From: Fragilaria crotonensis
Taxonomy: Eukaryota > Bacillariophyta > Fragilariophyceae > Fragilariales > Fragilariaceae
Direction: 5' to 3'
Assembly: GCA_022925895.1 (NCBI GenBank)
Contig: JAKSYS010000529.1
Span: 1 to 43,685, forward strand
DNA length: 43,685 bases
Shown: positions 728 to 43,685 of the stretch, piece after piece
Layout: every line of letters starts with the position of its first letter
Position numbering within the stretch: position 1 is the stretch's first letter
Notes under the pieces: generated by a model
The model's input: only the letters and a program-made list of their open reading frames with translations
Database searches by the model: none
What the model was told of the DNA's origin: nothing
Program-made: the position numbers and the translations under genes

Positions 728-2129
728 ATGTCGACTGATTACGTCCCTAAGAACATCTTTCTCACTGGTGGAGCCGGTAAGTGTTCAGATTTGAGTTGAT
801 GCAAGAGTTATCCGAGTTCTTGTTAGTATCGAGGGTGCATTACGATATGCATGACTATTGCCATGGAGTTCATCTGCTCTGATGATGCCTGATGCTGATA
901 GTTGTTGTTCACTGCTTTTTTGACTCGTGACTGAATGTAATGGTTGCAATGCAATTACCGGTGATTCGTGGAGGATATACACATCTTGTTTGTACTTCGA
1001 TAGTTCATAGTTCAGTTTCACAACATTTGTACTACACTATCTAACCTCAATCATCATATCACGATAACCGAACACCATGAATCCACTCGTGTCGCCATGA
1101 ATCATCCTCAGGTTTCATCGCCTCCCATGTGGCAATTCTGCTTTGTCAAAAGTATCCAGAGTACAATGTTGTCGTCTATGACAAGCTCGATTACTGTTCC
1201 TGTCTTGCCAATCTTGACGAGCTTCAAGGTTTGCCGAATTTCAAGTTTGTCAAGGGTGACATTTGTTCTCCTGATCTTGTTAGTTACGTACTGAAGGAGG
1301 AGCAGATCGATACCATTATGCATTTCGCCGCTCAGACGCATGTCGACAATTCTTTCGGAAATTCATTCGCCTTTACTCATTCCAACATTTACGGAACTCA
1401 CGTTCTGTTGGAGAGTGCCAAGTGCTGTCCAACAATCAAACGTTTCATTCACGTTTCGACGGACGAAGTCTACGGCGAAGGTGAAGACTTTGACACTGAT
1501 CCCATGATGGAGGATCACGTCCTCGAGCCAACGAATCCATACGCTGCCACCAAGGCTGGTGCTGAGTTCCTCGTCAAGAGCTACTTTAGGTCCTTCAAGC
1601 TCCCGTACTCATCACTCGCGGGAACAATGTCTACGGTCCTCACCAGTTCCCCGAAAAGTTGGTTCCCAAATTTACCAATCAGCTCTTGAAGGGCATGCCC
1701 CTCACCATCCACGGCGATGGGTCCAACACGCGCAACTTTTTGTTCGTGAAGGATGTTGCGAATGCCTTTGACTGCATCCTCCACAAGGGACAAGTTGGAC
1801 ACATTTACAACATTGGTGGCAAGAATGAAATTTCCAATTTGGATTTCGCCAAGACGCTCCTCAAGATCTTCAACAGGCACGAAGAGGAAGATAAGTGGAT
1901 CACATTCGTCCCAGATCGCAAATTTAACGATTTGCGATACACGATCAACTCTACCAAACTTCACGAATTGGGATGGAAAGAAGAAATGTCGTGGGAAGAA
2001 GGCCTTTTGACGACAGTCGAGTGGTACAAAAAGTACACTTCTCGTTATGGTAATATTGATTCTGCCTTGGTCGCACACCCACGCATTCTGAGCAACACTG
2101 CCGGTGACGAAGTTCCTTATCAAAAGTGA
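728..2129 (+). CDS. UDP-glucose 4,6-dehydratase (RHM-like), one intron, one frameshift
   Basis: Predicted to convert UDP-glucose to UDP-4-keto-6-deoxy-glucose, the first step of UDP-rhamnose synthesis, in the cytosol. Exon 1 is 728-776 and exon 2 is 1112-2129, joined across a GT-AG intron (777-1111) that splits the glycine codon of the NAD-binding motif TGGAGFIASHV. Visible short-chain dehydrogenase features are FAAQTHVDNSFGNS, STDEVYGEG with the catalytic Thr-Asp-Glu, and YAATK with the catalytic Tyr and Lys. Around base 1605 one base is missing (the family motif TRGNNVYGPHQFPEK resumes in the next frame). With that base the gene gives 355 residues, normal for a single-domain dehydratase. 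It matches the N-terminal half of plant RHM proteins; the C-terminal epimerase/reductase half is absent. The frameshift is probably an assembly error, since both sides are well conserved. Confidence 0.93.
777..1111 (+). other. Intron of the UDP-glucose 4,6-dehydratase gene
   Basis: The intron begins GTAAGTG and ends CCTCAG. Splicing restores the continuous motif Gly-Gly-Ala-Gly-Phe-Ile-Ala-Ser. At 335 bp it is the longest intron recognised in the window. Confidence 0.9.
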
Positions 2130-16286: not shown

Positions 16287-19200
16287 TGGCTTGTTTCGCT
16301 TCGTAGCAAAATATAGTGCAACTCGTGTAGGATCAGTACAAAATCCGTGACGTCTTCGTTTTATGCCAGGGGATGGCAGCCTCGCACATCGAAACAAGAC
16401 GATCGAAACCACACCAAAAAAAGTTGTTCGGACCATGATATTGTAACGACAACTTCACCAACTTACACTTCGTAACTGCCGAGCCTTTTGTTGCGACTGG
16501 ATCAATAATATACTTCAAGGCAGAGTTTAACTTGCGAGGGTCGGCAGTTGAGACATAATGAAGACGCTCGCAACGTATTATCAGTGTTGGCTTGAAATCA
16601 CCAAGCAACAACGATACCGAGACAAATGGCTGTCAGACGAACTCTATTTCCGTGCAATCAATGCCCAGTTTCCAACTCTCAAGGCCCTTGGATTCGATAG
16701 AGGCATGTTGAACAAAGCAATTTCATCATGCGAAGGCGCAACACTTGATGACTTCACAGAATCGAATGATACTGGCCGATTCCGGAGGTCAGCCAAAGGC
16801 CTTGATATCTTCGGCAATCCAAAACGAAAGATCTGGGGATACTACGTAACAGATCCCGGAGGATTGGTCGAACGTCCGCCAGATGGAAAGAAATGTTTCT
16901 TGTCTCTGTTGCAAGACGCAGGAATAAATGATCGCTATAGTGTGGCACGTGGTTCATCGGAAATTGTGGATCTGACGACGGAAATTCATATCCAATCGAG
17001 AGCAAAGAGGAAAGCTGAAGCAGGTGCAGCTGTTGCGGCACAATCTCCTGGTAGTCAGAAGAAAGCAAAGGCTTCTCAACTTGCTTCTGGATCTGATTCG
17101 GCAATTATCTCGGTAGAGAGCTACTGGGACAGTCCGGAGGCAAAAAAGCTCTTCCTTGGGAGCTCAACCGACAACCGAAGCGTTGTTGATGTTCTTCAGC
17201 AACGTATAGAAAGGCTGCAGCAAGTCAATAGAAGTCCTGACGGGTGGAGAGACCTCATTGATAAGCATGATGTAGACAATCTCTGTTCTCCGTATGATAT
17301 CTTCATAATACGACAGCGATGCTCCATTCTTTGCTTAGCATATATCATGGCCTTGGAGGAGATGAACTCTGCTCGGTGGGTAGAAGATTGCTGCTCCCAG
17401 GCTGTCTATGATAGCAATAGGATGGGCATTGAAGCCGCAACCAGCAAGCTTACAGTTGCAGGCTGGAATATCCTACTGCGAGCGAATCGCGAGCACTTTC
17501 CGTTACCAGACCCGAAGATACATAAACAAAAGAAACCACTCCCTGATCTTCTAGAGTACTTCCGTGAAGAAATCACATTACCATGGATTGACTACTGTAT
17601 TGGAAGCCTTGCTGACCTAACAGTGGAATCGGCACGTAACGAGCTGATCACTAAGATAATTCCTAACTATTGTTCGCAGGTGAATGACGATGACACGGAG
17701 GAGAATGCAACAAACAAGAACGGTGAATCTAGTACTACAATTAAAGACTGCTGCCCACTCCTTCAGACGTATCTAGATTCTCCTATCTCATTGACGACAA
17801 CCTGGCGATGGCTTCGACGTCTCGGCTTTCATTACGACAGTCGCAAGAAATCCTTCTTTGTTGATGGGCATGAGAGACCCAATGTCGTATTCCACCGGAA
17901 CGAGTTCTGCACGAAATACCTATCGAAGCTTGAACCTCGAACCCATCGATGGATTCAAGTGAGAAGAGAAACTGTGGAAAAGTGGAAGTCAGAGAAAAGA
18001 ATTTCAGACGACGTCGCAGGTCAAGGATATTCTTACCAAGAGCAGCCTTCGGGCAAAGAAATGATTGAATTCCACGTGGACGATTTTGATTTTCTTCATT
18101 CGGTTGCGGAGGAAATGGGCTTTGGTATGTTTGGAGGGAACCTCAGCGTTCGCAAGCCGCTAGGTCTGAAACCACTGATGATCTTCGGCCAAGATGAAAG
18201 CGTGTTCAACCAGTTTCTGCTCAAATCACGCCAATGGGTTGGGCCACTAGGTCAACGTCCACTTTTGCCAAAGACGGACGGAATGAGCCTCATGCTCTCC
18301 GCAATTCAATCGCGTGAAACCGGATTCGGAGTTCCGATCAGTCGGATTCAGATGGAAGAAATAAATGAGACTCGTCGTGGTCATAACTATGTTGACCTTG
18401 ATGCAGCGATTGCAGTTCATGGCCAAGTGTCCAAGAAAGACCTGGAAGAATCGCCATTTGTTGTGAGTTTCGAATTGGGAGCAAACAACGAAGGGTATTG
18501 GACTTACAATCACATGAGCATGCAGTTTGAGGACTGCGTCGACTGCATCAAAGTTATATACCCCCAATTTGACTTCGTTTTTCTGTTTGATCATTCGCAG
18601 GGACATTCAAAGAAATTGACGGGCGGTCTAGATGCTTACAGTATGAATAGAAGCTATGGAGGAGCACAACCAATAATGCGTGAGTCAAAAATAAAGGAAC
18701 ACGATGGGTACCTCGGGATGCATGCTGCACGAACCTTAAACGTTGGCGACACACAATCTTTTGTGTTTACCTCGGAGGATGATGGTCCATTCTGGATGTC
18801 ACCACAAGAACGGGAACTTAACCGTGATGACCGCATACTCCCATCTCCGGCAGGCATTCCGCGAATGCGAAACAAAACCATCGCTGAACTCAAATCGGAG
18901 CTCGCTCCACTCAATATCTTGAGCAATCGCCGCCAATATCGCCTGACCGAATTACAACAGATTGCAAGGGATAACAATTTGGATCCAAAAGTGGAAAGGA
19001 CAAGGGAGAAAAAGGTTGGTTAGGCCAGCCGAAAGGTCTCATGCAAGTCCTTTGGGAGCGAGGATGGATAGATGAAGGCAATATTGACAAGTATACAATG
19101 GATATTGCGAAGGACAAGAATGATGGTGAAGATATGGAGGATGCCGAAAATTGGAGCTTAAAATATCTGATGGCATCGTGTCTTGACTTTGCTGAAGAGA

Positions 19201-26577: not shown

Positions 26578-27921
26578 ATGAAGTTGTCAGCGTCCGTCGG
26601 AAAGATGAAAGTGCTGTCCAGAGCAGCCGTTGCCGTTGCAGCAGTAACAGCAAGAGCCTCAAGGTAAGAATGGGTTTTTAATAAGTTGCTGCGATATCTC
26701 CTCTTCGTCAATGCATCAGAAAGTATCCATGCTAACATTCCCATCACTCATAATGTCAAATCGCATCTATTGTATGCATATAGCGTACGTGCATACTCCG
26801 GTGTCATTTCCAAGACACTTACGGTACCCAAATTGGAGAAAGGCATGGATTACTGCAAACTAGGATCATCCGACCTTGAAGTCTCCAAGGTTTGTATGGG
26901 TACAATGACCTTTGGAAATCAAAATACTCTCCAAGAGGGAGTTCACCAACTCAATACTGCATTTGATGAGTACGGAGTTAACTTTATCGACACTGCCGAA
27001 ATGTATCCTGTACCCACCAATCCACAAACCTGCGGTGACACGGATCGGACTGTGGCCGAGTTCCTCAAATCACGAAATCGTGAGAGTGTCATTCTAGCCA
27101 CCAAAGTGTGTGGCCGATCGGACCGCATGACGTGGATGCCACGCGCTGAACCGGGGACGCCTGCGGAATTGAATCGAGACCAAATTTTGTTCTCGGTCGA
27201 CTCGTCACTCAAACGTTTGGGCGTCGACTACATTGACTTGCTGCAATTGCATTGGCCTGATCGATACACGGGAGGACTCTTTGGGCAACCGGATTTCTCA
27301 CCGTCGCAGCTTAAGGAGGGATACAATGCGTTTGAAGAACAACTGAGTGCGCTTCAACAAGTTGTTGAGGAAGGAAAGGTTCGCTACGTTGGTGTCAGCA
27401 ATGAAACGCCGTACGGAGTATGCTCCATGGTCGAGCTCGCAAAACATTCTCCCACACTGTACCCAAAGATTGTTTCTATTCAGAACTCATATTCTTTGGT
27501 AGTTCGCAAGGACTTTGATTCTGGCTTGGCAGAAGCATGTTACCATCACAAAGTAGGGTTGCTACCGTACAGTCCTCTTGCGGGAGGCAGCTTGAGTGGC
27601 AAATATCGCAATCCAGACCAACTCCCCGAGAAGGCACGTCTCAAGCTCTTTCCTGGTTTCATGGATCGCTACCTTGGTTCCTTGAATGAGGCCGCCGTCA
27701 ACGCATATGCTGCTCTCGCCGAAGACATTGGATTGACTCCAACGCAGTTGGCACTATCGTGGTGCTACCATCGCGAACACGTGGCTTCCACAATTATTGG
27801 TGCAACTACCATGACCCAACTGCACGAAGATATTCAGGCCTATGATGTTCGCCTGGACGATGACACTCTGTCCAAGATTAATGCAATTTACAAACAATAC
27901 ACGGATCCAACAAAAAGCTAA
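26578..27921 (+). CDS. Aldo/keto reductase, Tas-like, 407 aa, one intron (intact copy)
   Basis: Exon 1 is 26578-26663 and exon 2 is 26784-27921; the 120-bp intron runs GTAAGA to TATAG and splits a serine codon. NADPH-dependent carbonyl reductase of the aldo/keto reductase family, closest to the E. coli Tas type (motifs GTMTFGNQNT, DTAEMYPVP, YVGVSNETPYGV, IIGATTM). The catalytic tetrad is visible: Asp and Tyr in DTAEMY, Lys in ATKVCG, His in QLHWPDRY. The N-terminal 45 residues are Arg/Ala/Ser-rich without acids (VLSRAAVAVAAVTARAS...VRAYSG), suggesting a mitochondrial or other organelle targeting peptide. It is convergent with the sulfotransferase-glycosyltransferase gene, and its 3' part is duplicated downstream. 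Confidence 0.93.
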
Positions 27922-28238: not shown

Positions 28239-30261
28239 TTAAAGTTTCTTGGGTTTCTTGGTCGCCTTAAACGTGGGCTTGCTTGTTGTGGGCCTCCTTG
28301 TGGGATTCCTTGTTGGCGTAATTGCGGGGTTGTTTGTAGGCTTCTTTGTGGGTGCCCTTGTGGGGTTTCTTGTGGGTGCCCTTGTGGGTTTTCTTGTAGG
28401 TCTTCTAGTGGGCTTTCTGGTCGGCTTTCTGGTCGGCTTGTAATTGGCGGCTTTAAGCGCGCGTCCGAGGTATCGTTTCTGACTGACACCGCCCATCTTT
28501 TCGATCAAGAGATCAAGACAACCGTAGAACTTTCCGGGAGTGTGGATCATCATCGGGGAGGTCTTCGTCACACTGTGGATCAATACGCTTTTGCTGTCTT
28601 CGAAAAAGACACAACCGGCCTCTAACCCTTTGGGCCATTCGGCGACTCCAAACAACTCGTTCTCGTAGTCGAGAACCAGTGCCTCAGGATCATGGTAAAG
28701 AAGTCCCGACAGAACAGCCTGGTCATCTTCAGTCTCGCCGATATCTACACGATCCAGGAGATGGAGAATGTTCCTTGCTGAACCGGCGAAGACGCCAGCA
28801 TTCAAGTAAGCACTTGCCTGGTATTCTCCCGTCCGATGATACGAGAGTTCCGACATGAAGGTTTTCCATGCGTTGATACGGAAGCCATCCTCGTACTGGC
28901 ATGTGTCCTTTCCAGAGGTGCAGGCTCGCTCCTTTCGTTCGCCTGTGATCGGATCGAAGTAGTCGAGTGGACCAGCTTGGCTCATGGCCGAAACACAGCA
29001 CTGAGGTTCAGCTGACATTACCACAGCATCAGGTCGGTTAATCGTCATTCTCTGATAGGACGAGATGAAATGGGAAACGATGCTGGCTGCTGACTCTCTG
29101 TCAGGGACATTCAGCAGGACGTCTCTTGCATCCGAGACAACAACGAGGGTGTCGTCGCTCATTTCCTTCAGAATGTCACGGATGTGTAGGTACTTGTCAC
29201 CCCATCCCTTGAAGCTCGTGCCTGCTCCAAATGTTGTTGTCTCGATTCCAACCCGTTCGCTCGTCTGGAGGAAAAACCCAAGCGAGGAATTCTCTTCGTA
29301 CTGTTCGGTGCTCGACGTCTCAAACATGATGATATGAACCTTATTGAAGGTTTGCTTGTTTGAAAACATCTTTTTGGATTGAAGCGAACCGGACCTCTCA
29401 ACAGGGAAGGGAATCTTTTTAAGTGGCAAGCCGAACTCGCGGATGCTGTAGTCTTCTTCATAGAACAATTCCAAAGTCGACTCAATGCGAGGAGTCATCA
29501 GCTTCGAAAGGAGATCCCAGGACCCAGAAAGCTCGCTGGAGGTGGCGTCAGTGAGCTTATCTTTTGCTGCGAAGATGGCCTCATTGCCATGCTCACCCCA
29601 ACCAGATGATCCGAACGCCTCCCACGCTCCGATCCTTTCGAGCAAAGATCTTGCGTCGGCTTCGGCGGTCTCGAGGTGACCGACAAAGTTGAGCGTGGGG
29701 ACAAACTTTCTGTCGATCCAGGTGCTCATTGGAATCCAGTGCTTGTCATCACAGGACTGAATAAGTGATACAAAGTCAGACATGGTCTGGTACTTGTGGA
29801 GACAGTTTTGGTCTTGAGGACAACATGCTTGCTTGATTGAGGCATCGCCGCTCATGACTTTGTCGAGGAAGGTGGACAGAAAGCGATCCTTTGGGTCACG
29901 AACGAAGGTGGCTCTGGTGTACTCGAGAATTCATCATCGCCGCGGCCTGCTCGGGGAAAATCCGAGAGCCGGACAAGTCCTTCAAAAGAATCATCGTCGA
30001 TTGACTTCCAGTTCTCCAATCCCATCATACGTCGAAGCAGCATCAACCAGAGGGTGTCAGCGACCTTTGGAACTGGAAAAAGATGAGCTTGTTGCTCTCA
30101 ATAACGATTGGGGAAGAGTCGATCATATTCATGAACATATGATCATCTTGTTCAACAGGAATGTAGGACGATGCTCCGTTCGAGGTCACATTCCAAAATG
30201 GAATGGCGCAGCATACAAGGAGTGCAAAGGCAGCTGCGGCCGGTTTCAGACTTGCAATCAT
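28239..30261 (-). CDS. Sulfotransferase / PLOD-type glycosyltransferase fusion with (K/R)PT tail, copy 1
   Basis: Starts at 30261 with MIASLKPAAAAFALLVCCAI, a signal peptide or Golgi signal anchor. The sulfotransferase part has FPVPKVADTLWLMLLRR (5'-phosphosulfate loop) and TFVRDPKDRFLSTF (3'-phosphate site), as in carbohydrate sulfotransferases. The second part matches the procollagen/PLOD-type glycosyltransferase: VVVSDARDVLL with the metal-binding acidic residues, SAEPQCC, YLNAGVFAGSA, EDDQAVLSGLLYHD and HTPGKF. The C-terminus is a run of KPTR/RPTR/APTR units ending TKKPKKL. Compared with copy 2, this copy lacks 1 base (A run near 30080) and 2 bases at each of two places (near 29958 and 29929), all in the sulfotransferase part; otherwise it would be about 675 residues. 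Likely Golgi lumenal enzyme acting on secreted glycoproteins or polysaccharides. Confidence 0.85.
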
Positions 30262-33362: not shown

Positions 33363-33926
33363 GTTTCAAGGAGCAGATGGTTGCAGACCGCTTGCGAATT
33401 GAGTCCGCATTGACGCAGCGGCCGACAGCAAGATCGTCAACCTGCTGCCGAGAGGTGAACATCGTCTGGAGGAATCAGTATAAGGTCCCTCTATATATGC
33501 TTTGCTCGTGTGTCGTTGATACAGAACCATGGCCGGACAATACTTTATTCAGAAAGCGCTCCCAGCAAAGGGAGCCGGACTCATCGGGGCGGTGGCCTTG
33601 CAGTGCGTGTTGGACCGGGAGCACCTGGTCGCGCTATAAGGGTGTGCCGTGCGTGCTGGTTGCAGTACGCCAGACGGACGCACACACACAATTAATTTAT
33701 AATATAGTAGGATATGGAAGCTCGATTGGCTCGATGATGGGACAGTCATTATTGGAAGATCTCATGGTACAAGCATGAAATCCGCAATGATACCCCAATA
33801 AATGCTATCATATCCACGGCATCGGCGGTTCGTCCTTCCGATAATGATAGTCAGACTGCAACTATCCAACACTTTGTCGAGGCAATTTATGAATCTGGTC
33901 ATATACCCTGACAATTGAAACTTGGA
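33363..33926. repeat. Hinge between units 1 and 2
   Basis: The first part (33363-33680) has no counterpart in the equivalent hinge at 40188-40430. The second part, from the 32-bp repeat at 33685 to the junction with the reductase fragment, is nearly identical to 40431-40672. The hinge has no counterpart upstream of the intact reductase gene. Confidence 0.8.
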
Positions 33927-34785
33927 ATCCTGTACCAACCAATCCACAGACCTGCGGTGACACGGATCGGACTGTGGCCGAGTTCCTCAAAACACGAAAT
34001 CGCGACAGTGTCATGTGTGGCCGTTCCGATCGCATGACGTGGATGCCACGCGCCGAACCGGGGACGCCTGCGGAATTGAATCGAGACCAAGTTTTGTTCA
34101 GTGTCGATTCGTCACTCAAACGTTTCGGCGTCGACTACATTGACTTGCTGCAATTGCATTGGCCCGATCGGTATACGGGTGGACTCTTTGGGCAACCAGA
34201 CTTCTCACCGCTGCAGCTTAAGGAGGGATACAATGACTTTGAAGAGCAAGGTTCGCTACGTTGGTGTCAGCAATGAAACACCATATGGAGTATGCTCCAT
34301 GGTTGAGCTCGCAAAACATTCTCCAGCTCTCTATTCAAAGGTTGTTTCTATTCAGAACTCTTATTCTTTGGTGGTTCGCAAGGACTTTGATTCTGGCTTG
34401 GCAGAACCATGTTACCATCACAAGGTAGGCTTGCTACCGTACAGTACTCTTGCGGGAGGCAGCTTGAGCGGCAAGTAACGGAATCCAGACAAACTCCCAA
34501 AGAAGGCACGTCTCAAGCTATTTCCAGGTTTCATGGATCGCTACCTTGGTTGCGCCGCCGTCAACGCATATGCTGCCCTCGCCGAAGACACAGGATTGAC
34601 TCCAACGCAATTGGCAACTATCGTGGTGCTACCATCGCGAACACGTGGCTTCTACAATTATTGGTGGAACAACCATGACCCAACTGCACGAAGATATTCA
34701 GGCCTATGGTATTCGTCTGGACGACGACACTCTGTTCAAGATTAATGCCATCTACAAGCAATACACGGATCCAACAGAAAGCTAA
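33927..34785 (+). pseudogene. Aldo/keto reductase pseudogene, copy 2
   Basis: 5'-truncated: similarity to the intact gene begins at its codons for PVPTNPQTCGD. A 15-base deletion turns SVILATKVCGRSD into SVMCGRSD and removes the catalytic lysine. A 35-base deletion shifts the frame (FEEQ joined directly to KVRYVGVSNE). TAA replaces a tyrosine codon in GSLSGKYRNP, and 12 bases are lost in the region of GSLNEAAVN. A further 1-base insertion lies near the C-terminus. The start, targeting peptide and first strand are missing. Confidence 0.93.
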
Positions 34786-35089
34786 CCAATAGGTCCACCC
34801 TGTGTCGTACGTCATCCAATGCCGCCGTGGACTCGAGACATTGCGGACAACCATGAGTTCTACTACGACAAGAGTACAATGCATACAACGACATGCGCTT
34901 CCAGCATGATTGCCGCAAGCTCGTCACCTCTTTCACAGTGCACCATCACACAAAAATTTGATTAGTTTATGTATTACAAACACATCCTGGAGTAAAGTTG
35001 ATACATTCTGCTCCACACCTTGTGCCGTGGGCAACGCCTTCATCACTCATCACCAGTTCCCAGAAAACCGATCTCGCGGGCTGTTCGAC

Positions 35090-37050
35090 TTAAAGTTTCT
35101 TGTTCTTTTTGGTCGACTTAGTGGGCGCTCTGGTTGGCTTTCTCGTCGGCCTGTTTGCGGGCTTTGTGGTGGGCTTTCTTGTCGGCTTTTTGGTGGGCTT
35201 TCTCGTCGGCTTTCTGGTCGGCTTGTAATTGGCGGCTTTAAGTGCGCGTCCGAGGTATCGTTTCTGACTGACACCGCCCATCTTTTCGATCAAGAGATCA
35301 AGACAACCGTAGAACTTTCCGGGAGTGTGGATCATCATCGGGGAGGCCTTCGTCACACTGTGGATCAAAATGTTTTCGCTGTCTTCGAAAAAGACACAAC
35401 CGGCCTCTAACCCTTGGGCCATTCGGCAACTCCAAACAATTCGTTCTCGTAGTCGAGAACCAGTGCTTCAGGATCATGGTAAAGAAGTCCCGACAGAACA
35501 GCCTGGTCATCTTCAGTCTCGCCGATGTCTACACGATCCAGGAGATGGAGAATGTTCCTTGCTGAACCGGCGAAGACGCCAGCATTCAAGTACGCACTTG
35601 CCTGGTATTCTCCCGTCCGATGATACGAGAGATCCGACATGAAGGTTTTCCATGCGTTGATACGGAAGCCATCCTCGTACTGGCATGTGTCCTTTCCAGA
35701 GGTGCAGGCTCGCTCCTTTCGTTCGCCTGTGATCGGATCGAAGTAGTCGAGTGGACCAGCTTGGCTCATGGCCGAAACACAGCACTGAGGTTCAGCTGAC
35801 ATTACCACAGCATCAGGTCGGTTAATCGTCATTCTCTGATAGGACGAGATGAAATGGGAAACGATGCTGGCTGCTGACTCTCTGTCAGGGACATTCAGCA
35901 GGACGTCTCTTGCATCCGAGACAACAACGAGGGTGTCGTCGCTCATTTCCTTCAGAATGTCACGGATGTGCAGATACTTGTCACCCCATCCCTTGAAGCT
36001 CGTACCTGCTCCGAATGTTGCTGTCTCGATTCCAACCCGTTCGCTCGTCTGGAGGAAAAACCCAAGCGAGGAATTCTCTTCGTACTGTTCGGTGCTCGAC
36101 GTCTCAAACATGATGATATGAACCTTATTGAAGGTTTGCTCGTTCGAAAACATCTTTTTGGATTGAAGCGAACCGGACATCTCAACAGGGAAGGGAATCT
36201 TTTTAAGTGGCAAGCCGAACTCGCGGATGCTGTAGTCTTCTTCGTAGAACAATTCCAAAGTCGACTCAATGCGAGGAGTCATCAGCTTCGAAAGGAGATC
36301 CCAGGACCCAGAAAACTCGCTGGAGGTGGCGTCAGTGAGCTTATCTTTTGCTGCGAAGATGGCCTCATTGCCATGCTCACCCCAACCAGATGATCCGAAC
36401 GCCTCCCACGCTCCGATCCTTTCGAGCAAAGATCTTGCGTCGGCTTCGGCGGTCTCGAGGTGACCGACAAAGTTGAGCGTGGGGACAAACTTTCTGTCGA
36501 TCCAGGTGCTCATTGGAATCCAGTGCTTGTCATCACAGGTCTGAATAAGTGATACAAAGTCAGACATGGTCTGGTACTTGTGGAGACAGTTTTGGTCTTG
36601 AGGACAACATGCTTGCTTGATTGAGGCATCGCCGCTCATGACTTTGTCGAGGAAGGTGGACAGAAAGCGATCCTTTGGGTCACGAACGAAGGTGGCTCTG
36701 GTGTACTCGGGAGAATTCATCATCGCCGCGGCCTGCTCGGGGGGAAAATCCGAGAGCCGGACAAGTCCTTCAAAAGAATCATCGTCGATTGACTTCCAGT
36801 TCTCCAATCCCATCATACGTCGAAGCAGCATCAACCAGAGGGTGTCAGCGACCTTTGGAACTGGAAAAAAGATGAGCTTGTTGCTCTCAATAACGATTGG
36901 GGAAGAGTCGATCATATTCATGAACATATGATCATCTTGTTCAACAGGAATGTAGGACGATGCTCCGTTCGAGGTCACATTCCAAAATGGAATGGCGCAG
37001 CATACAAGGAGTGCAAAGGCAGCTGCGGCCGGTTTCAGACTTGCAATCAT
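35090..37050 (-). CDS. Sulfotransferase / PLOD-type glycosyltransferase fusion, copy 2 (best preserved)
   Basis: An uninterrupted frame from the ATG at 37050 covers signal anchor, the whole sulfotransferase part and nearly all of the glycosyltransferase part (547 residues), then meets TAA after AEWPKG at 35407. Copy 1 has one more base at this T run and reads on as AEWPKGLEAGCVFFED; with it copy 2 would be 653 residues and end in a tail of KPTRKPTKKPTRKPT-type units finishing APTKSTKKNKKL. The tail is shorter than that of copy 1 and includes KPANRPT. Domain positions: anchor about 1-25, sulfotransferase 55-260, glycosyltransferase 300-590, tail from about 605. The single stop-causing indel may be an assembly error. 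Confidence 0.88.
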
Positions 37051-40187: not shown

Positions 40188-40672
40188 TGCAGTTCATTTA
40201 TCGCACGTTCAGTAACATTTGTGAAGCAACCTGTGCTTCTAGCAGATTCAATAACTGCTCATCAGTAACTTTGAATCGAACAGTATAGGTCCTACAGTAT
40301 ATGCTTTGACTCTGTCGTTCAACATGAATTTTAATGATTTGTACCAGAGAGCCTGAAGTACATGTAATCCACACGTGCGTGTACAAGCAGTCGCTATAGT
40401 GGTCGCCTCCGTTGCAGACGCAGACACACACACACAATTAATTTATAATATAGTAGGATATGGAAGCTCGATTGGCTCCATGATGGTGGGACAGTCATTA
40501 TTGGAAGATCTCATGTACAAGCATGAAATCGTAATGATACCCCAATAAATGCTATCATATCCACGGCATGGCGGTTCGTCCTTCCGATAATGATAGTCAG
40601 ACTGCAACTATCCAACACTTTGTCGAGGCAATTTATGAATCTGGTCATATACCCTGACAATTGAAACTTGGA
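40188..40672. repeat. Hinge between units 2 and 3
   Basis: The first 240 bp are unrelated to the equivalent block at 33363-33680; the remainder, from the 32-bp repeat at 40431, matches it closely. Confidence 0.8.
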
Positions 40673-41494
40673 ATCCTGTACCAACCAAACACCTGCGGTG
40701 ACACGGATCGGACTGTGGCCGAGTTCCTCAAAACACGAAATCGCGACAGTGTCATGTGTGGCAGTTCCGATCATGACGTGGATGCCACGCGCCGAACCGG
40801 GGACGCCTGCGGAATTGAATCGAGACCAAGTTTTGTTCAGTGTCGATTCGTCACTCAAACGTTTCGGCGTCGACTACATTGACTTGCTGCAATTTGCATT
40901 GCCCGATCGGTATACGGGTGGACTCTTGGGCAACCAGACTTCTCACCGCTGCAGCTTAAGGAGGGATACAATGACTTTGAAGAGCAAGGTTCGCTACGTT
41001 GGTGTCAGCAATGAAACACCATATGGGTATGCTCCATGGTTGAGCTCGCAAAACATTCTCCAGCTCTCTATTCAAAGGTTGTTTCTATTCAGAACTCTTA
41101 TTCTTTGGTGGTTCGCAAGGACTTTGATTCTGGCTTGGCAGAACCATGTTACCATCACAAGGTAGGCTTGCTACCGTACAGTACTCTTGCCGGAAATCCA
41201 GACAAACTCCCAGAAGGCACGTCTCAAGCTATTTCCAGGTTTCATGGATCGCTACCTTGGTTGCGCCGCCGTCAACGCATATGCTGCCCTCGCCGAAGAC
41301 ACAGGATTGACTCCAACGCAATTGGCAACTATCGTGGTGCTACCATCGCGAACACGTGGCTTCTACAATTATTGGTGGAACAACCATGACCCAACTGCAC
41401 GAAGATATTCAGGCCTATGGTATTCGTCTGGACGACGACACTCTGTTCAAGATTAATGCCATCTACAAGCAATACGGATCCAACAGAAAGCTAA
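40673..41494 (+). pseudogene. Aldo/keto reductase pseudogene, copy 3
   Basis: Shares with copy 2 the 5' truncation, the 15-base loss of the catalytic lysine, the 35-base deletion and the 12-base loss, so these predate their separation. It has additional small deletions, for example at NPQT (3 codons lost), in GRSDRMTW, in GLFGQP, and a loss covering the GGSLSGK codons where copy 2 has its stop. Confidence 0.92.
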
Positions 41495-41798: not shown

Positions 41799-43685
41799 TT
41801 AAAGTTTCTTGTTCTTTTTGGTCGACTTAGTGGGCGCTCTGGTTGGCTTTCTCGTCGGCTTGTTTGCGGGCTTTTTGGTGGGCTTTCTTGTCGGCTTTCT
41901 CGTCGGCTTTCTCGTCGGCATTCTCGTCGGCTTGTAATTGGCGGCTTTAAGCGCGCGTCCGAGGTATCGTTTCTGACTGACACCGCCCATCTTTTCGATC
42001 AAGAGATCAAGACAACCGTAGAACTTTCCGGGAGTGTGGATCATCATCAGGGAGCCCGTCACACTGTGGATCAAAATGTTTTCGCTGTCTTCGAAAAAGA
42101 CACAACCGGCCTCTAACCCTTGGGCCATTCGGCAACTCAAACAATTCGTTCGTAGTCGAGAACCAGTGCTTCAGGATCATGGTAAAGAAGTCCCGACAGA
42201 ACAGCCTGGTCATCTTCAGTCTCGCCGATGTCTACGATCCAGGAGATGGAGAATGTTCCTTGCTGAACCGGCGAAGACGCCAGCATTCAAGTAAGCACTT
42301 GCCTGGTATTCTCCCGTCCGATGATACGAGTTCCGACATGAAGGTTTTCCATGCGTTGATACGGAAGCCATCCTCGTACTGGCATGTGTCCTTTCCAGAG
42401 GTGCAGGCTCGCTCCTTTCGTTCGCCTGTGATCGGATCGAAGTAGTCGAGTGGACCAGCTTGGCTCATGGCCGAAACACAGCACTGAGGTTCAGCTGACA
42501 TTACCACAGCATCAGGTCGGTTAATCGTCATTCTCTGATAGGACGAGATGAAATGGGAAACGATGCTGCTGCTGACTCTCTGTCAGGGACATTCAGCAGG
42601 ACGTCTCTTGCATCCGAGACAACAACGAGGGTGTCGTCGCTCATTTCCTTCAGAATGTCACGGATGTGCAGATACTTGTCACCCCATCCCTTGAAGCTCG
42701 TACCTGCTCCGAATGTTGTTGTCTCGATTCCAACCCGTTCGCTCGTCTGGAGGAAAAACCCAAGCGAGGAATTCTCTTCGTACTGTTCGGTGCTCGACGT
42801 CTCAAACATGATGATATGAACCTTATTGAAGGTTTGCTTGTTTGAAAACATCTTTTTGGATTGAAGCGAACTGGACATCTCAACAGGGAAGGGAATCTTT
42901 TTAAGCGGCAAGCCGAACTCGCGGATGCTGTAGTCTTCTTCGTAGAACAATTCCAAAGTCGACTCAATGCGAGGAGTCATCAGCTTCGACAGGAGATCCC
43001 AGGACCCAGAAAGCTCGCTGGAAGTGACGTCAGTGAGCTTATCTTTTGTTGCGAAGATGGCCTCATTGTCATGCTCACCCCAACCAGATGATCCGAACGC
43101 CTCCCACGCTCCGATCCTTTCGAGCAAAGATCTTGCGTCGGCTTCGGCGGTCTCGAGGTGACCGACAAAGTTGAGCGTGGGACAAACTTTCTGTCGATCC
43201 AGGTGCTCATTGGAATCCAGTGCTTGTCATCACAGGTCTGAATAAGTGATACAAAGTCAGACATGGTCTGGTACTTGTGGAGACAGTTTTGGTCTTGAGG
43301 ACAACATGCTTGCTTGATTGAGGCATCGCCGCTCATGACTTTGTCGAGGAAGGTGGACAGAAAGCGATCCTTTGGGTCACGAACGAAGGTGGCTCTGGTG
43401 TACTCGGAGAATTCATCATCGCCGCGGCCTGCTCGGGGAAAATCCGAGCCGGACAAGTCCTTCAAAAGAATCATCGTCGATTGACTTCCAGTTCTCCAAT
43501 CCCATCATACGTCGAAGCAGCATCAACCAGAGGGTGTCAGCGACCTTTGGAACTGGAAAAAGATGAGCTTGTGCTCTCAATAACGATTGGGGAAGAGTCG
43601 ATCATATTGATGAACATATGATCATCTTGTTCCACAGGAATGTAGGACGATGAACCGTTCGAGGTCACATTCCAAAATGGAATGG
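41799..43685 (-). pseudogene. Sulfotransferase / PLOD-type glycosyltransferase fusion, copy 3 (partial, many indels)
   Basis: The 5' end lies beyond the window; the sequence stops within the signal-anchor region. Relative to copy 2 the frame is broken repeatedly by 1-4 base deletions, for example near 43457, 43180, 42568, 42330, 42235 and 42055. Domain content and order are the same, and the tail (KPTRMPTRKPTRKPTRKPT...KPTRAPTKSTKKNKKL) is of the copy 2 type. I label it a pseudogene as written, but the pattern of scattered small deletions suggests unpolished sequence. Confidence 0.8.

What the first reader, a model, noticed from the sequence alone, without database searches (positions are those of the whole stretch)
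35090..37050. Sulfotransferase fused to a PLOD-type glycosyltransferase and a (K/R)PT repeat tail
One gene joins a signal anchor, a carbohydrate-sulfotransferase-like domain (RDPKDRFLS), a PLOD/procollagen-type glycosyltransferase domain (SDARDVLL, YLNAGVFAGSA, EDDQ) and a basic Pro-Thr tetrapeptide tail. Seen: the motifs, in one open frame in copy 2 and across the tail in copy 1. Known: these two enzyme classes act in the Golgi on secreted glycans and are normally separate proteins. Inferred: a bifunctional enzyme that glycosylates and sulfates an extracellular polymer, with the tail as a wall, silica or adhesive anchor or an acceptor for its own modification.
Basis: partly seen in the sequence, partly recalled or inferred. 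Interest (0 to 1): 0.85.

Follow-up and report, generated by a model that had tools for sequence, protein, structure and literature searches.

The report
Diatom sulfotransferase–glycosyltransferase fusion gene family
A diatom carries a family of genes that join, in one probably secreted protein, an enzyme that puts sulfate on sugars and an enzyme that attaches sugars, so one molecule may both build and sulfate a sugar decoration of the cell surface.

Summary
The core of the finding holds. Copy 2 (35407-37050, minus strand, 547 aa) is one open frame with a Sulfotransfer_2 domain (73.7 bits, cut-off 22) and a GT_PLOD domain (30.8 bits, cut-off 27). No window copy carries signal, both domains and tail in one frame: in copy 2 the tail is frame-shifted, in copy 1 the N-terminal half is broken. 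But the same genome (probably Fragilaria crotonensis SAG 28.96, a Nanopore assembly) holds uninterrupted paralogues of 608, 607 and 735 aa on other contigs, the last with a PT tail. Among five paralogues both domains evolve under purifying selection (dN/dS 0.10-0.19 and 0.12-0.22) while the 21-residue linker is looser. So the fusion is a real, maintained gene family. Metal-binding residues of the glycosyltransferase appear kept; the UDP-stacking residues of LH3 are not. Best reading: a secretory-pathway enzyme that adds a sugar and sulfates the same glycan. Acceptor, donor and activity are unknown. The tail is optional and variable. No such fusion showed in the listings of six paper searches. 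Structure prediction failed; other diatoms could not be searched. New variant of known kinds; moderately interesting.

The parts
35407..37050 (-). Copy 2: ST-GT open reading frame, 547 aa, incomplete at the GT C-terminus because of a frame break
36970..37050 (-). Copy 2: putative signal peptide (about residues 1-27)
   Evidence: hydropathy; boundary is an estimate
36229..36894 (-). Copy 2: Sulfotransfer_2 domain (residues 53-274) with PKVADT and RDPKDRFLS
   Evidence: E 3.4e-20, 73.7 bits against cut-off 22
36133..36195 (-). Copy 2: weakly constrained interdomain linker (residues 286-306)
   Evidence: boundaries chosen by hand from alignment A1
35410..36132 (-). Copy 2: GT_PLOD-like glycosyltransferase domain up to the frame break (residues 307-547)
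   Evidence: start chosen by hand
35090..35406 (-). Copy 2: end of the GT domain (with IHTPGKF) and the basic (K/R)PT tail, in a different frame
28239..29855 (-). Copy 1: ORF of 538 aa, C-terminal part of ST + complete GT + basic PT tail
29856..30261 (-). Copy 1: signal peptide and first part of ST, broken by short indels
41799..43685 (-). Copy 3: broken ST-GT copy with basic tail, cut off by the end of the contig
26686..27921 (+). Aldo/keto reductase gene, convergent partner in the 6.7-6.8 kb tandem unit (further copies, without a long frame, near 33.9-34.8 kb and 40.7-41.5 kb)

Best explanation
A diatom gene family encodes a bimodular enzyme of the secretory pathway: signal peptide, PAPS-dependent carbohydrate sulfotransferase of the Sulfotransfer_2 type, a short flexible linker, a GT-A type glycosyltransferase of the GT_PLOD family, and in some members a disordered Pro-Thr tail. 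SHOWN: one frame, both domains above curated cut-offs, several paralogues on different contigs, purifying selection on both halves. INFERRED: the protein enters the ER/Golgi lumen; the GT half, with a metal ion bound by an Asp-x-x-Asp pair and a C-terminal His, adds a sugar from a nucleotide-sugar donor to a secreted glycoprotein or wall glycan; the ST half transfers sulfate from PAPS to that same or a neighbouring sugar, so extension and sulfation are coupled in space. The tail, where present, is an accessory segment, not part of the catalytic core.
For: Both domains above cut-off in copy 2 and in P0003-P0006 (4 of 4); at E <= 0.01 GT_PLOD in 8 of 8 and Sulfotransfer_2 in 6 of 8 members of A1, the other two being frames that lack much of the ST. 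Uninterrupted two-domain frames on C198, C119 and C267. dN/dS over 10 pairs: ST 0.10-0.19, GT 0.12-0.22, linker 0.16-1.15, signal 0.39-1.34. The only PDB sequences matched by the family profile at E <= 0.1 are the GT enzymes R699 (0.0068) and LH3 (0.018). LH3's metal ligands Asp112, Asp115, His253 and the residues Asp190/191, whose mutation abolishes activity (PMC6082870, passages), line up with D379, D382, the His of IHTPGKF and D514/D515. PKVADT and RDPKDRFLS in 5 of 5 fused proteins that cover them (PAPS role recalled). 7 of 7 GT_PLOD matches listed for the genome lie next to an ST half.
Against: No activity, transcript or structure data. The GT_PLOD scores are only just above cut-off and the best stretch covers mainly the second half of the model (126-225 of 246 in P0003 and P0004). 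With copy 2 alone the best PDB hit was R699 at E 0.61. The DxxD part of the LH3 and R699 alignments scores only 0.6 and 1.0 bits. LH3's UDP-stacking Tyr114 is an Arg here, and no Trp is aligned with Trp75, so donor binding must differ. Structure prediction failed (mean pLDDT 29.9). Three related genes (L009-L011) lack the GT core yet keep a constrained ST, so the coupling is dispensable in some copies. Window copies 1-3 are all frame-broken as assembled.
Confidence: 0.6

Rival explanations
1. The fusion is real, but only one half is catalytic: the GT half has become a glycan- or protein-binding module that positions the sulfotransferase.
For: UDP-stacking residues of LH3 are not kept (residues from PMC6082870, passages); three relatives lost the GT core and kept the ST.
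Against: The Asp pair and the EDDQ pair are invariant in the 8 rows of A1 and the His is present in the six rows that reach it; GT dN/dS is about as low as for the ST.
Confidence: 0.22
2. The window copies themselves are pseudogenes in a tandem array, while the functional genes lie elsewhere in the genome.
For: All three copies have frame-breaking indels; copies 2 and 3 share one lost T, and copies 1 and 3 share two losses relative to copy 2.
Against: Outside the tail, 4 of 4 indels between copies 1 and 2 and 7 of 12 between copies 2 and 3 lie in runs of one base, and 4 of the other 5 in two-base repeats (the last count by eye from its list). The assembly is Nanopore R9.4.1/Canu with short-read polishing (PMC9476933, part 1 of the text read), where near-identical tandem repeats polish poorly (general knowledge). 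Copies 1 and 2 keep a readable protein on both sides of their breaks. C286 and C174 read the same over most of their length, but only C286 loses the frame near the GT end.
Confidence: 0.35
3. Assembly or annotation artefact: two separate neighbouring genes read as one.
For: Draft assembly with frame errors; no transcript was available here.
Against: The same two-domain frame occurs on contigs C198, C119, C267 and C871, with dS of 0.73-1.52 per domain between paralogues; the linker is only about 20 residues with in-frame length differences, leaving no room for gene ends.
Confidence: 0.03

Closest known systems
Human LH3/PLOD3 GT domain and mimivirus R699 (collagen galactosylhydroxylysyl glucosyltransferases)
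   Same: Nearest solved structures to the second half by sequence profile; Asp-x-x-Asp motif, LN(S/A)G.F.G motif, D190/D191-like EDDQ, C-terminal His; LH3 is itself a GT fused to another enzyme domain.
   Different: Here the partner is a sulfotransferase; no lysyl hydroxylase domain; UDP-stacking Trp75/Tyr114 not kept; a Cys-containing stretch in mid-domain (by eye). E-values to the solved structures are weak (0.0068 and 0.018).
Carbohydrate sulfotransferases of the Sulfotransfer_2 family (CHST8-15, HS2ST, HS6ST, UST as listed in PMC4659905, passages; brown-algal STs)
   Same: PF03567 domain over nearly its whole length (model 4-251 in P0003 and P0004), both PAPS-site motifs (roles recalled).
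   Different: Fused to a GT; PKVADT instead of the (A/P)KVGCT of this genome's stand-alone members; signal peptide rather than a membrane anchor (inferred).
Stand-alone sulfotransferases L015-L017 (same genome) and L022 (contig binned as Flavobacteriales, probably eukaryotic)
   Same: 34-35% and 42% identity to copy 2.
   Different: No GT; outside the fused + truncated clade (support of that clade 100/100, 100/99).
Truncated relatives L009-L011 (same genome)
   Same: Same clade; keep the first 23-33 aligned residues of the GT domain after the ST.
   Different: GT core lost, different short C-terminus.
Other two-module algal glycan enzymes (FK-GFPP and GT74-GT2 in brown algae; PMC11468063, passages)
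   Same: Two activities of one glycan pathway in one chain.
   Different: Neither joins a sulfotransferase to a glycosyltransferase.

Membership tests
Sulfotransfer_2 (PF03567) | Profile score above the curated cut-off | tested here: met
   73.7 bits against 22 in copy 2; 66.0-77.5 bits in P0003-P0006; the truncated frame of copy 1 stays below, 18.9
Sulfotransfer_2 (PF03567) | PAPS-binding motifs: Lys/Thr of the 5' loop and R..P..R..S of the 3' loop (motif roles recalled) | tested here: met
   PKVADT and RDPKDRFLS in 5 of 5 fused proteins that cover them; of the three truncated ones L011 lacks the Thr
Sulfotransfer_2 (PF03567) | Sulfate transfer from PAPS to a sugar | not testable with these tools
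   needs an enzyme assay
GT_PLOD (PF25342) | Profile score above the curated cut-off | tested here: met
   30.8 and 38.4 bits against 27; 30.0-36.8 bits in P0003-P0006; 8 of 8 members of A1 at E <= 0.01; margins small
GT_PLOD (PF25342) | Match over the whole domain | tested here: inconclusive
   best stretch covers model 126-225 or 126-230 of 246 in the complete members P0003-P0005; the first half is at best a weak second stretch
GT_PLOD (PF25342) | Metal site Asp112, Asp115, His253 of LH3 | tested here: met
   D379, D382 and the His of IHTPGKF aligned (residues from PMC6082870, passages); the Asp pair rests on an aligned segment of only 0.6 bits, the His on one of 13.8 bits; the His lies beyond the frame break in copy 2
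GT_PLOD (PF25342) | UDP-stacking Trp75 and Tyr114 of LH3 | tested here: not met
   Tyr114 is Arg381 (invariant); no Trp aligned at the Trp75 place (weak alignment); an invariant Trp355 lies nearby
Procollagen-lysine hydroxylase/GT (LH/PLOD) | C-terminal Fe/2-oxoglutarate lysyl hydroxylase domain | tested here: not met
   no Pfam domain at E <= 0.01 in P0003, P0004, P0005 besides ST, GT and the PT repeat
Collagen GGT activity | Acceptor Gly-X-Lys in collagen-like proteins | tested here: inconclusive
   six loci holding 9 of the 15 collagen-model matches were read: no Lys in Y in the Gly-X-Y runs of five, 2 of 10 triplets in the sixth
PT repeat (PF04886) | Score above cut-off | tested here: inconclusive
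   copy 1 31.3 against 26.2; P0005 18.5, below; no match in P0003 and P0004

The most novel reading that the evidence does not exclude
A diatom enzyme that first glycosylates hydroxylated residues (for example hydroxylysine) of silica-associated wall proteins and then sulfates that same glycan, accounting for the glycosylated and sulfated state reported for silaffin-2 and the Thalassiosira silaffins (PMC4557024, passages). The PT tail in some copies would dock the enzyme on its substrate or serve as its own acceptor.
Probability: 0.08. Interest if true: 0.8.

Novelty: new variant of a known kind. Interest (0 to 1): 0.5.

Why it matters
Sulfated glycans of diatoms matter for wall formation, adhesion and carbon export, yet few of the enzymes that make them have been identified (general knowledge). 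A natural protein holding a glycosyltransferase and a sulfotransferase in one chain names an acceptor-coupled pair that can be expressed and assayed directly, and it places the PLOD-type GT family on a partner other than the lysyl hydroxylase.

Tried and rejected
Structure prediction of copy 2 with window sequences only (3 closely similar rows) gave mean pLDDT 29.9 and pTM 0.18; no fold search was run on it. The second structure job was not used: I judged the rows that the tool admits too few.

Relatives in viral contigs: three scans (A1, A2, A3) found none; they rest on two short peptide patterns each, so distant relatives would be missed. The one scan of genome contigs found one stand-alone ST, L022, on a 3,140-base contig binned as Flavobacteriales; it is ST only. 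No eukaryote genome besides G000 could be searched, so the spread among diatoms is untested.

Papers: six searches aimed at an ST-GT fusion or at algal ST/GT enzymes showed none in their listings (listed of found: 20 of 35, 20 of 28, 2 of 2, 15 of 204, 12 of 17, 1 of 1). Listings are titles and abstract starts, so this is weak. My recollection of GT7-sulfotransferase modules in Chondrus was not borne out in the passages read (PMC7359372).

GT-only stretches on C95 (L023, L024) proved to be copies of the last 75 or so residues of the GT set inside another locus; C130 (L025) is a degenerate copy. These, and a broken copy of residues 2-330 at C456:38373-39155 (fetched as L019, no long frame shown), were left out of the count of 11 loci. 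Copy 3 was not scanned with Pfam. L007 and L012-L014, which are broken, were left out of the dN/dS counts, and these together with copy 1 out of the trees.

Collagen-like proteins as acceptor: collagen-model matches exist, but the runs read have almost no Lys in Y; two of the six loci (L027, L030) look like simple-repeat frames.

PHROGs hits were weak (E 0.0012-0.0024 to a galactose-3-O-sulfotransferase family for P0001 and P0003; 0.00032 to a family of unknown function over the copy 1 tail region) and add nothing. Alignment A4 was spoilt by a frame-shifted row and dropped for A5.

Full report
WHERE THE WINDOW COMES FROM. The window is the whole of contig C480 of a genome of 62,107,879 bases in 881 contigs. 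It has silicon transporters of the diatom type, including a 1456-aa frame with three transporter units. Size and contig number are close to Fragilaria crotonensis SAG 28.96 (61.85 Mb nuclear, 879 contigs; PMC9476933, part 1 of the text read), not equal; the identity is an inference from these numbers. That assembly is Nanopore R9.4.1 + Canu, polished with short reads, from a non-axenic culture.

WHAT IS IN THE WINDOW. A unit of 6.7-6.8 kb occurs three times in tandem (spacings of 6784 and 6698 for the longest repeat). Each unit has an aldo/keto reductase gene on the plus strand (a full frame in the first unit only, 26686-27921; Pfam E 6.9e-67) and, facing it, the finding's gene on the minus strand. 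Copy 2 is one frame of 547 aa (35407-37050), with Sulfotransfer_2 at residues 53-274 (3.4e-20) and GT_PLOD (2.2e-7). Copy 1 has a 538-aa frame (28239-29855) with the end of the ST (below cut-off), the complete GT (1.1e-9) and a PT-repeat tail (1.5e-7). Copy 3 is cut by the contig end and is the most broken.

FRAMES. No window copy has signal, ST, GT and tail in one frame. In copy 2 the frame ends after WPKG; the remaining GT residues, which include the expected third metal ligand (IHTPGKF), and the tail are in another frame, with one T fewer than in copy 1. In copy 1 the first part of the ST is broken. Outside the tail, copies 1 and 2 differ by 23 substitutions and 4 indels in 1829 columns, copies 2 and 3 by 21 substitutions and 12 indels in 1772, the 12 all losses in copy 3; 4 of 4 and 7 of 12 of these indels lie in runs of one base. 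This fits uncorrected Nanopore errors in near-identical repeats; but copies 2 and 3 share the lost T, and copies 1 and 3 share two other losses, so real pseudogenisation is not excluded.

THE FUSION IS REAL. A search of the own genome with copy 2 gave 38 matches. I count 11 loci with both halves: three in C480, one each in C198, C871, C267, C680, C286 and C174, and two in C119. C286 and C174 read the same over most of their length and may be two haplotypes of one gene. Uninterrupted complete frames are C198 (608 aa from the homologous start), C119 (607 aa) and C267 (735 aa); C871 has both domains in a 564-aa frame that ends early like copy 2. All 7 GT_PLOD matches listed for the genome lie directly behind an ST half, three of them in an uninterrupted complete frame. 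That list is not complete: copy 2, C871 and C286 are missing from it, though they pass the cut-off when scanned as proteins. So no stand-alone GT of this family was seen, within the limits of that search. Sulfotransfer_2 gave 33 matches, stand-alone ones among them.

SELECTION. By the Nei-Gojobori counts in my script, over the 10 pairs among copy 2, C198, C119, C267 and C871, dN/dS is 0.10-0.19 for the ST (residues 46-285), 0.12-0.22 for the GT (307-547), 0.16-1.15 for the linker (286-306) and 0.39-1.34 for the signal region (1-35). dS for the two domains is 0.73-1.52, so both have been kept together over considerable divergence. The linker and signal ranges rest on few codons. This is the strongest evidence that both halves do something.

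HISTORY. A tree of the ST half puts the five fused and three truncated proteins together, apart from the stand-alone ones (100/100 without L022; 100/99 with it). The fused members alone are not one side of a branch (2 changes in both trees), and inner forks are weak. The truncated genes (C526, C128, C456:32146) still carry the beginning of the GT domain (23-33 aligned residues) and then end differently, so they probably descend from fused ancestors and lost the GT; their ST stays constrained among themselves (dN/dS 0.23-0.32), their new ends less so (0.41-0.70). Inference: one fusion, expansion by duplication, loss of the GT in some copies.

THE TWO CATALYTIC HALVES. ST: PKVADT and RDPKDRFLS correspond to the PAPS-binding loops (recalled). 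GT: the family profile matches R699 (E 0.0068) and LH3 (0.018) and no other solved sequence at E <= 0.1; copy 2 alone found only R699 at E 0.61. LH3's Asp112, Asp115 and His253 form the metal site, and mutation of Asp190 and Asp191 was reported to abolish activity (PMC6082870, passages). The aligned residues are D379, D382, the His of IHTPGKF, D514 and D515; the Asp residues are invariant in the 8 rows of A1, the His present in the six rows that reach it. The segment with D379/D382 aligns with only 0.6-1.0 bits, that with D514, D515 and (for LH3) the His with 13.8-14.6 bits. Against a plain LH3-like enzyme: Tyr114 is Arg, and no Trp is aligned with Trp75, although both stack on uracil in LH3 and the Trp is critical in R699 (PMC9546862, passages). 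An invariant Trp355 in the same loop region might serve instead (inference). The Pfam match is strongest over the second half of the model.

TARGETING AND TAIL. The N-termini have one run of 17-21 nonpolar or small residues and no other strongly hydrophobic stretch, and end in ANA/SNA/AHA-like sites in four of five proteins (by eye): a cleaved signal peptide is more likely than an anchor. Tails: copy 1 66 residues from the first KPT, 23 Lys+Arg and no acid; copies 2 and 3 44 and 36 residues counted the same way, 19 and 16 Lys+Arg, no acid, in shifted frames; C267 142 residues from RYLG, 21 Lys+Arg and 31 Asp+Glu; C198 and C119 none.

ACCEPTOR. Not known. Collagen-model matches occur (15), but in six loci holding 9 of them the Gly-X-Y runs had no Lys in Y in five loci and 2 of 10 triplets in one, and two loci look like mere simple repeats. 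Sulfated, glycosylated silaffins (PMC4557024, passages) and sulfated wall and extracellular polysaccharides (PMC4584364, passages) are plausible targets in diatoms generally; nothing here links this enzyme to either.

NOVELTY. The parts are known families; the combination was not seen in the listings. That does not show absence from print or from databases; other diatom proteomes could not be searched. I rate it a new variant of a known kind.

Noticed in passing
window 26686-27921, about 33900-34790, about 40670-41480: Aldo/keto reductase gene in three tandem copies, convergent with the ST-GT gene; only the first copy gives a full frame.
   Followed up: partly
window 1129-2129 (+): Nucleotide-sugar dehydratase/epimerase (GDP_Man_Dehyd, E 3.5e-38 and 2.4e-11) split into two overlapping frames; a sugar-nucleotide gene on the same contig.
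   Followed up: partly
G000 C97:29749-33762: Three silicon-transporter units in one 1456-aa frame, and two in one 1008-aa frame on C771.
   Followed up: no
L023 1004-1273, L024 842-1111 (C95; a third place at C95:85780): The last 75 or so residues of the GT domain, about 90% identical to the C198 protein, lie in repeated loci of another gene: a duplicated 3' end.
   Followed up: partly
L009, L010, L011: Sulfotransferases that still carry the first 23-33 aligned residues of the lost GT domain and then a different short C-terminus.
   Followed up: yes
L022 1471-2412: Contig binned as Flavobacteriales holds a stand-alone ST 42% identical to the ST half; a frame at 727-963 looks retroelement-like, so the contig is probably eukaryotic and misbinned (judged by eye).
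   Followed up: partly
window 16558-19023 (+): 821-aa frame with no Pfam match at E <= 1e-5; looks transposase-like by eye.
   Followed up: no
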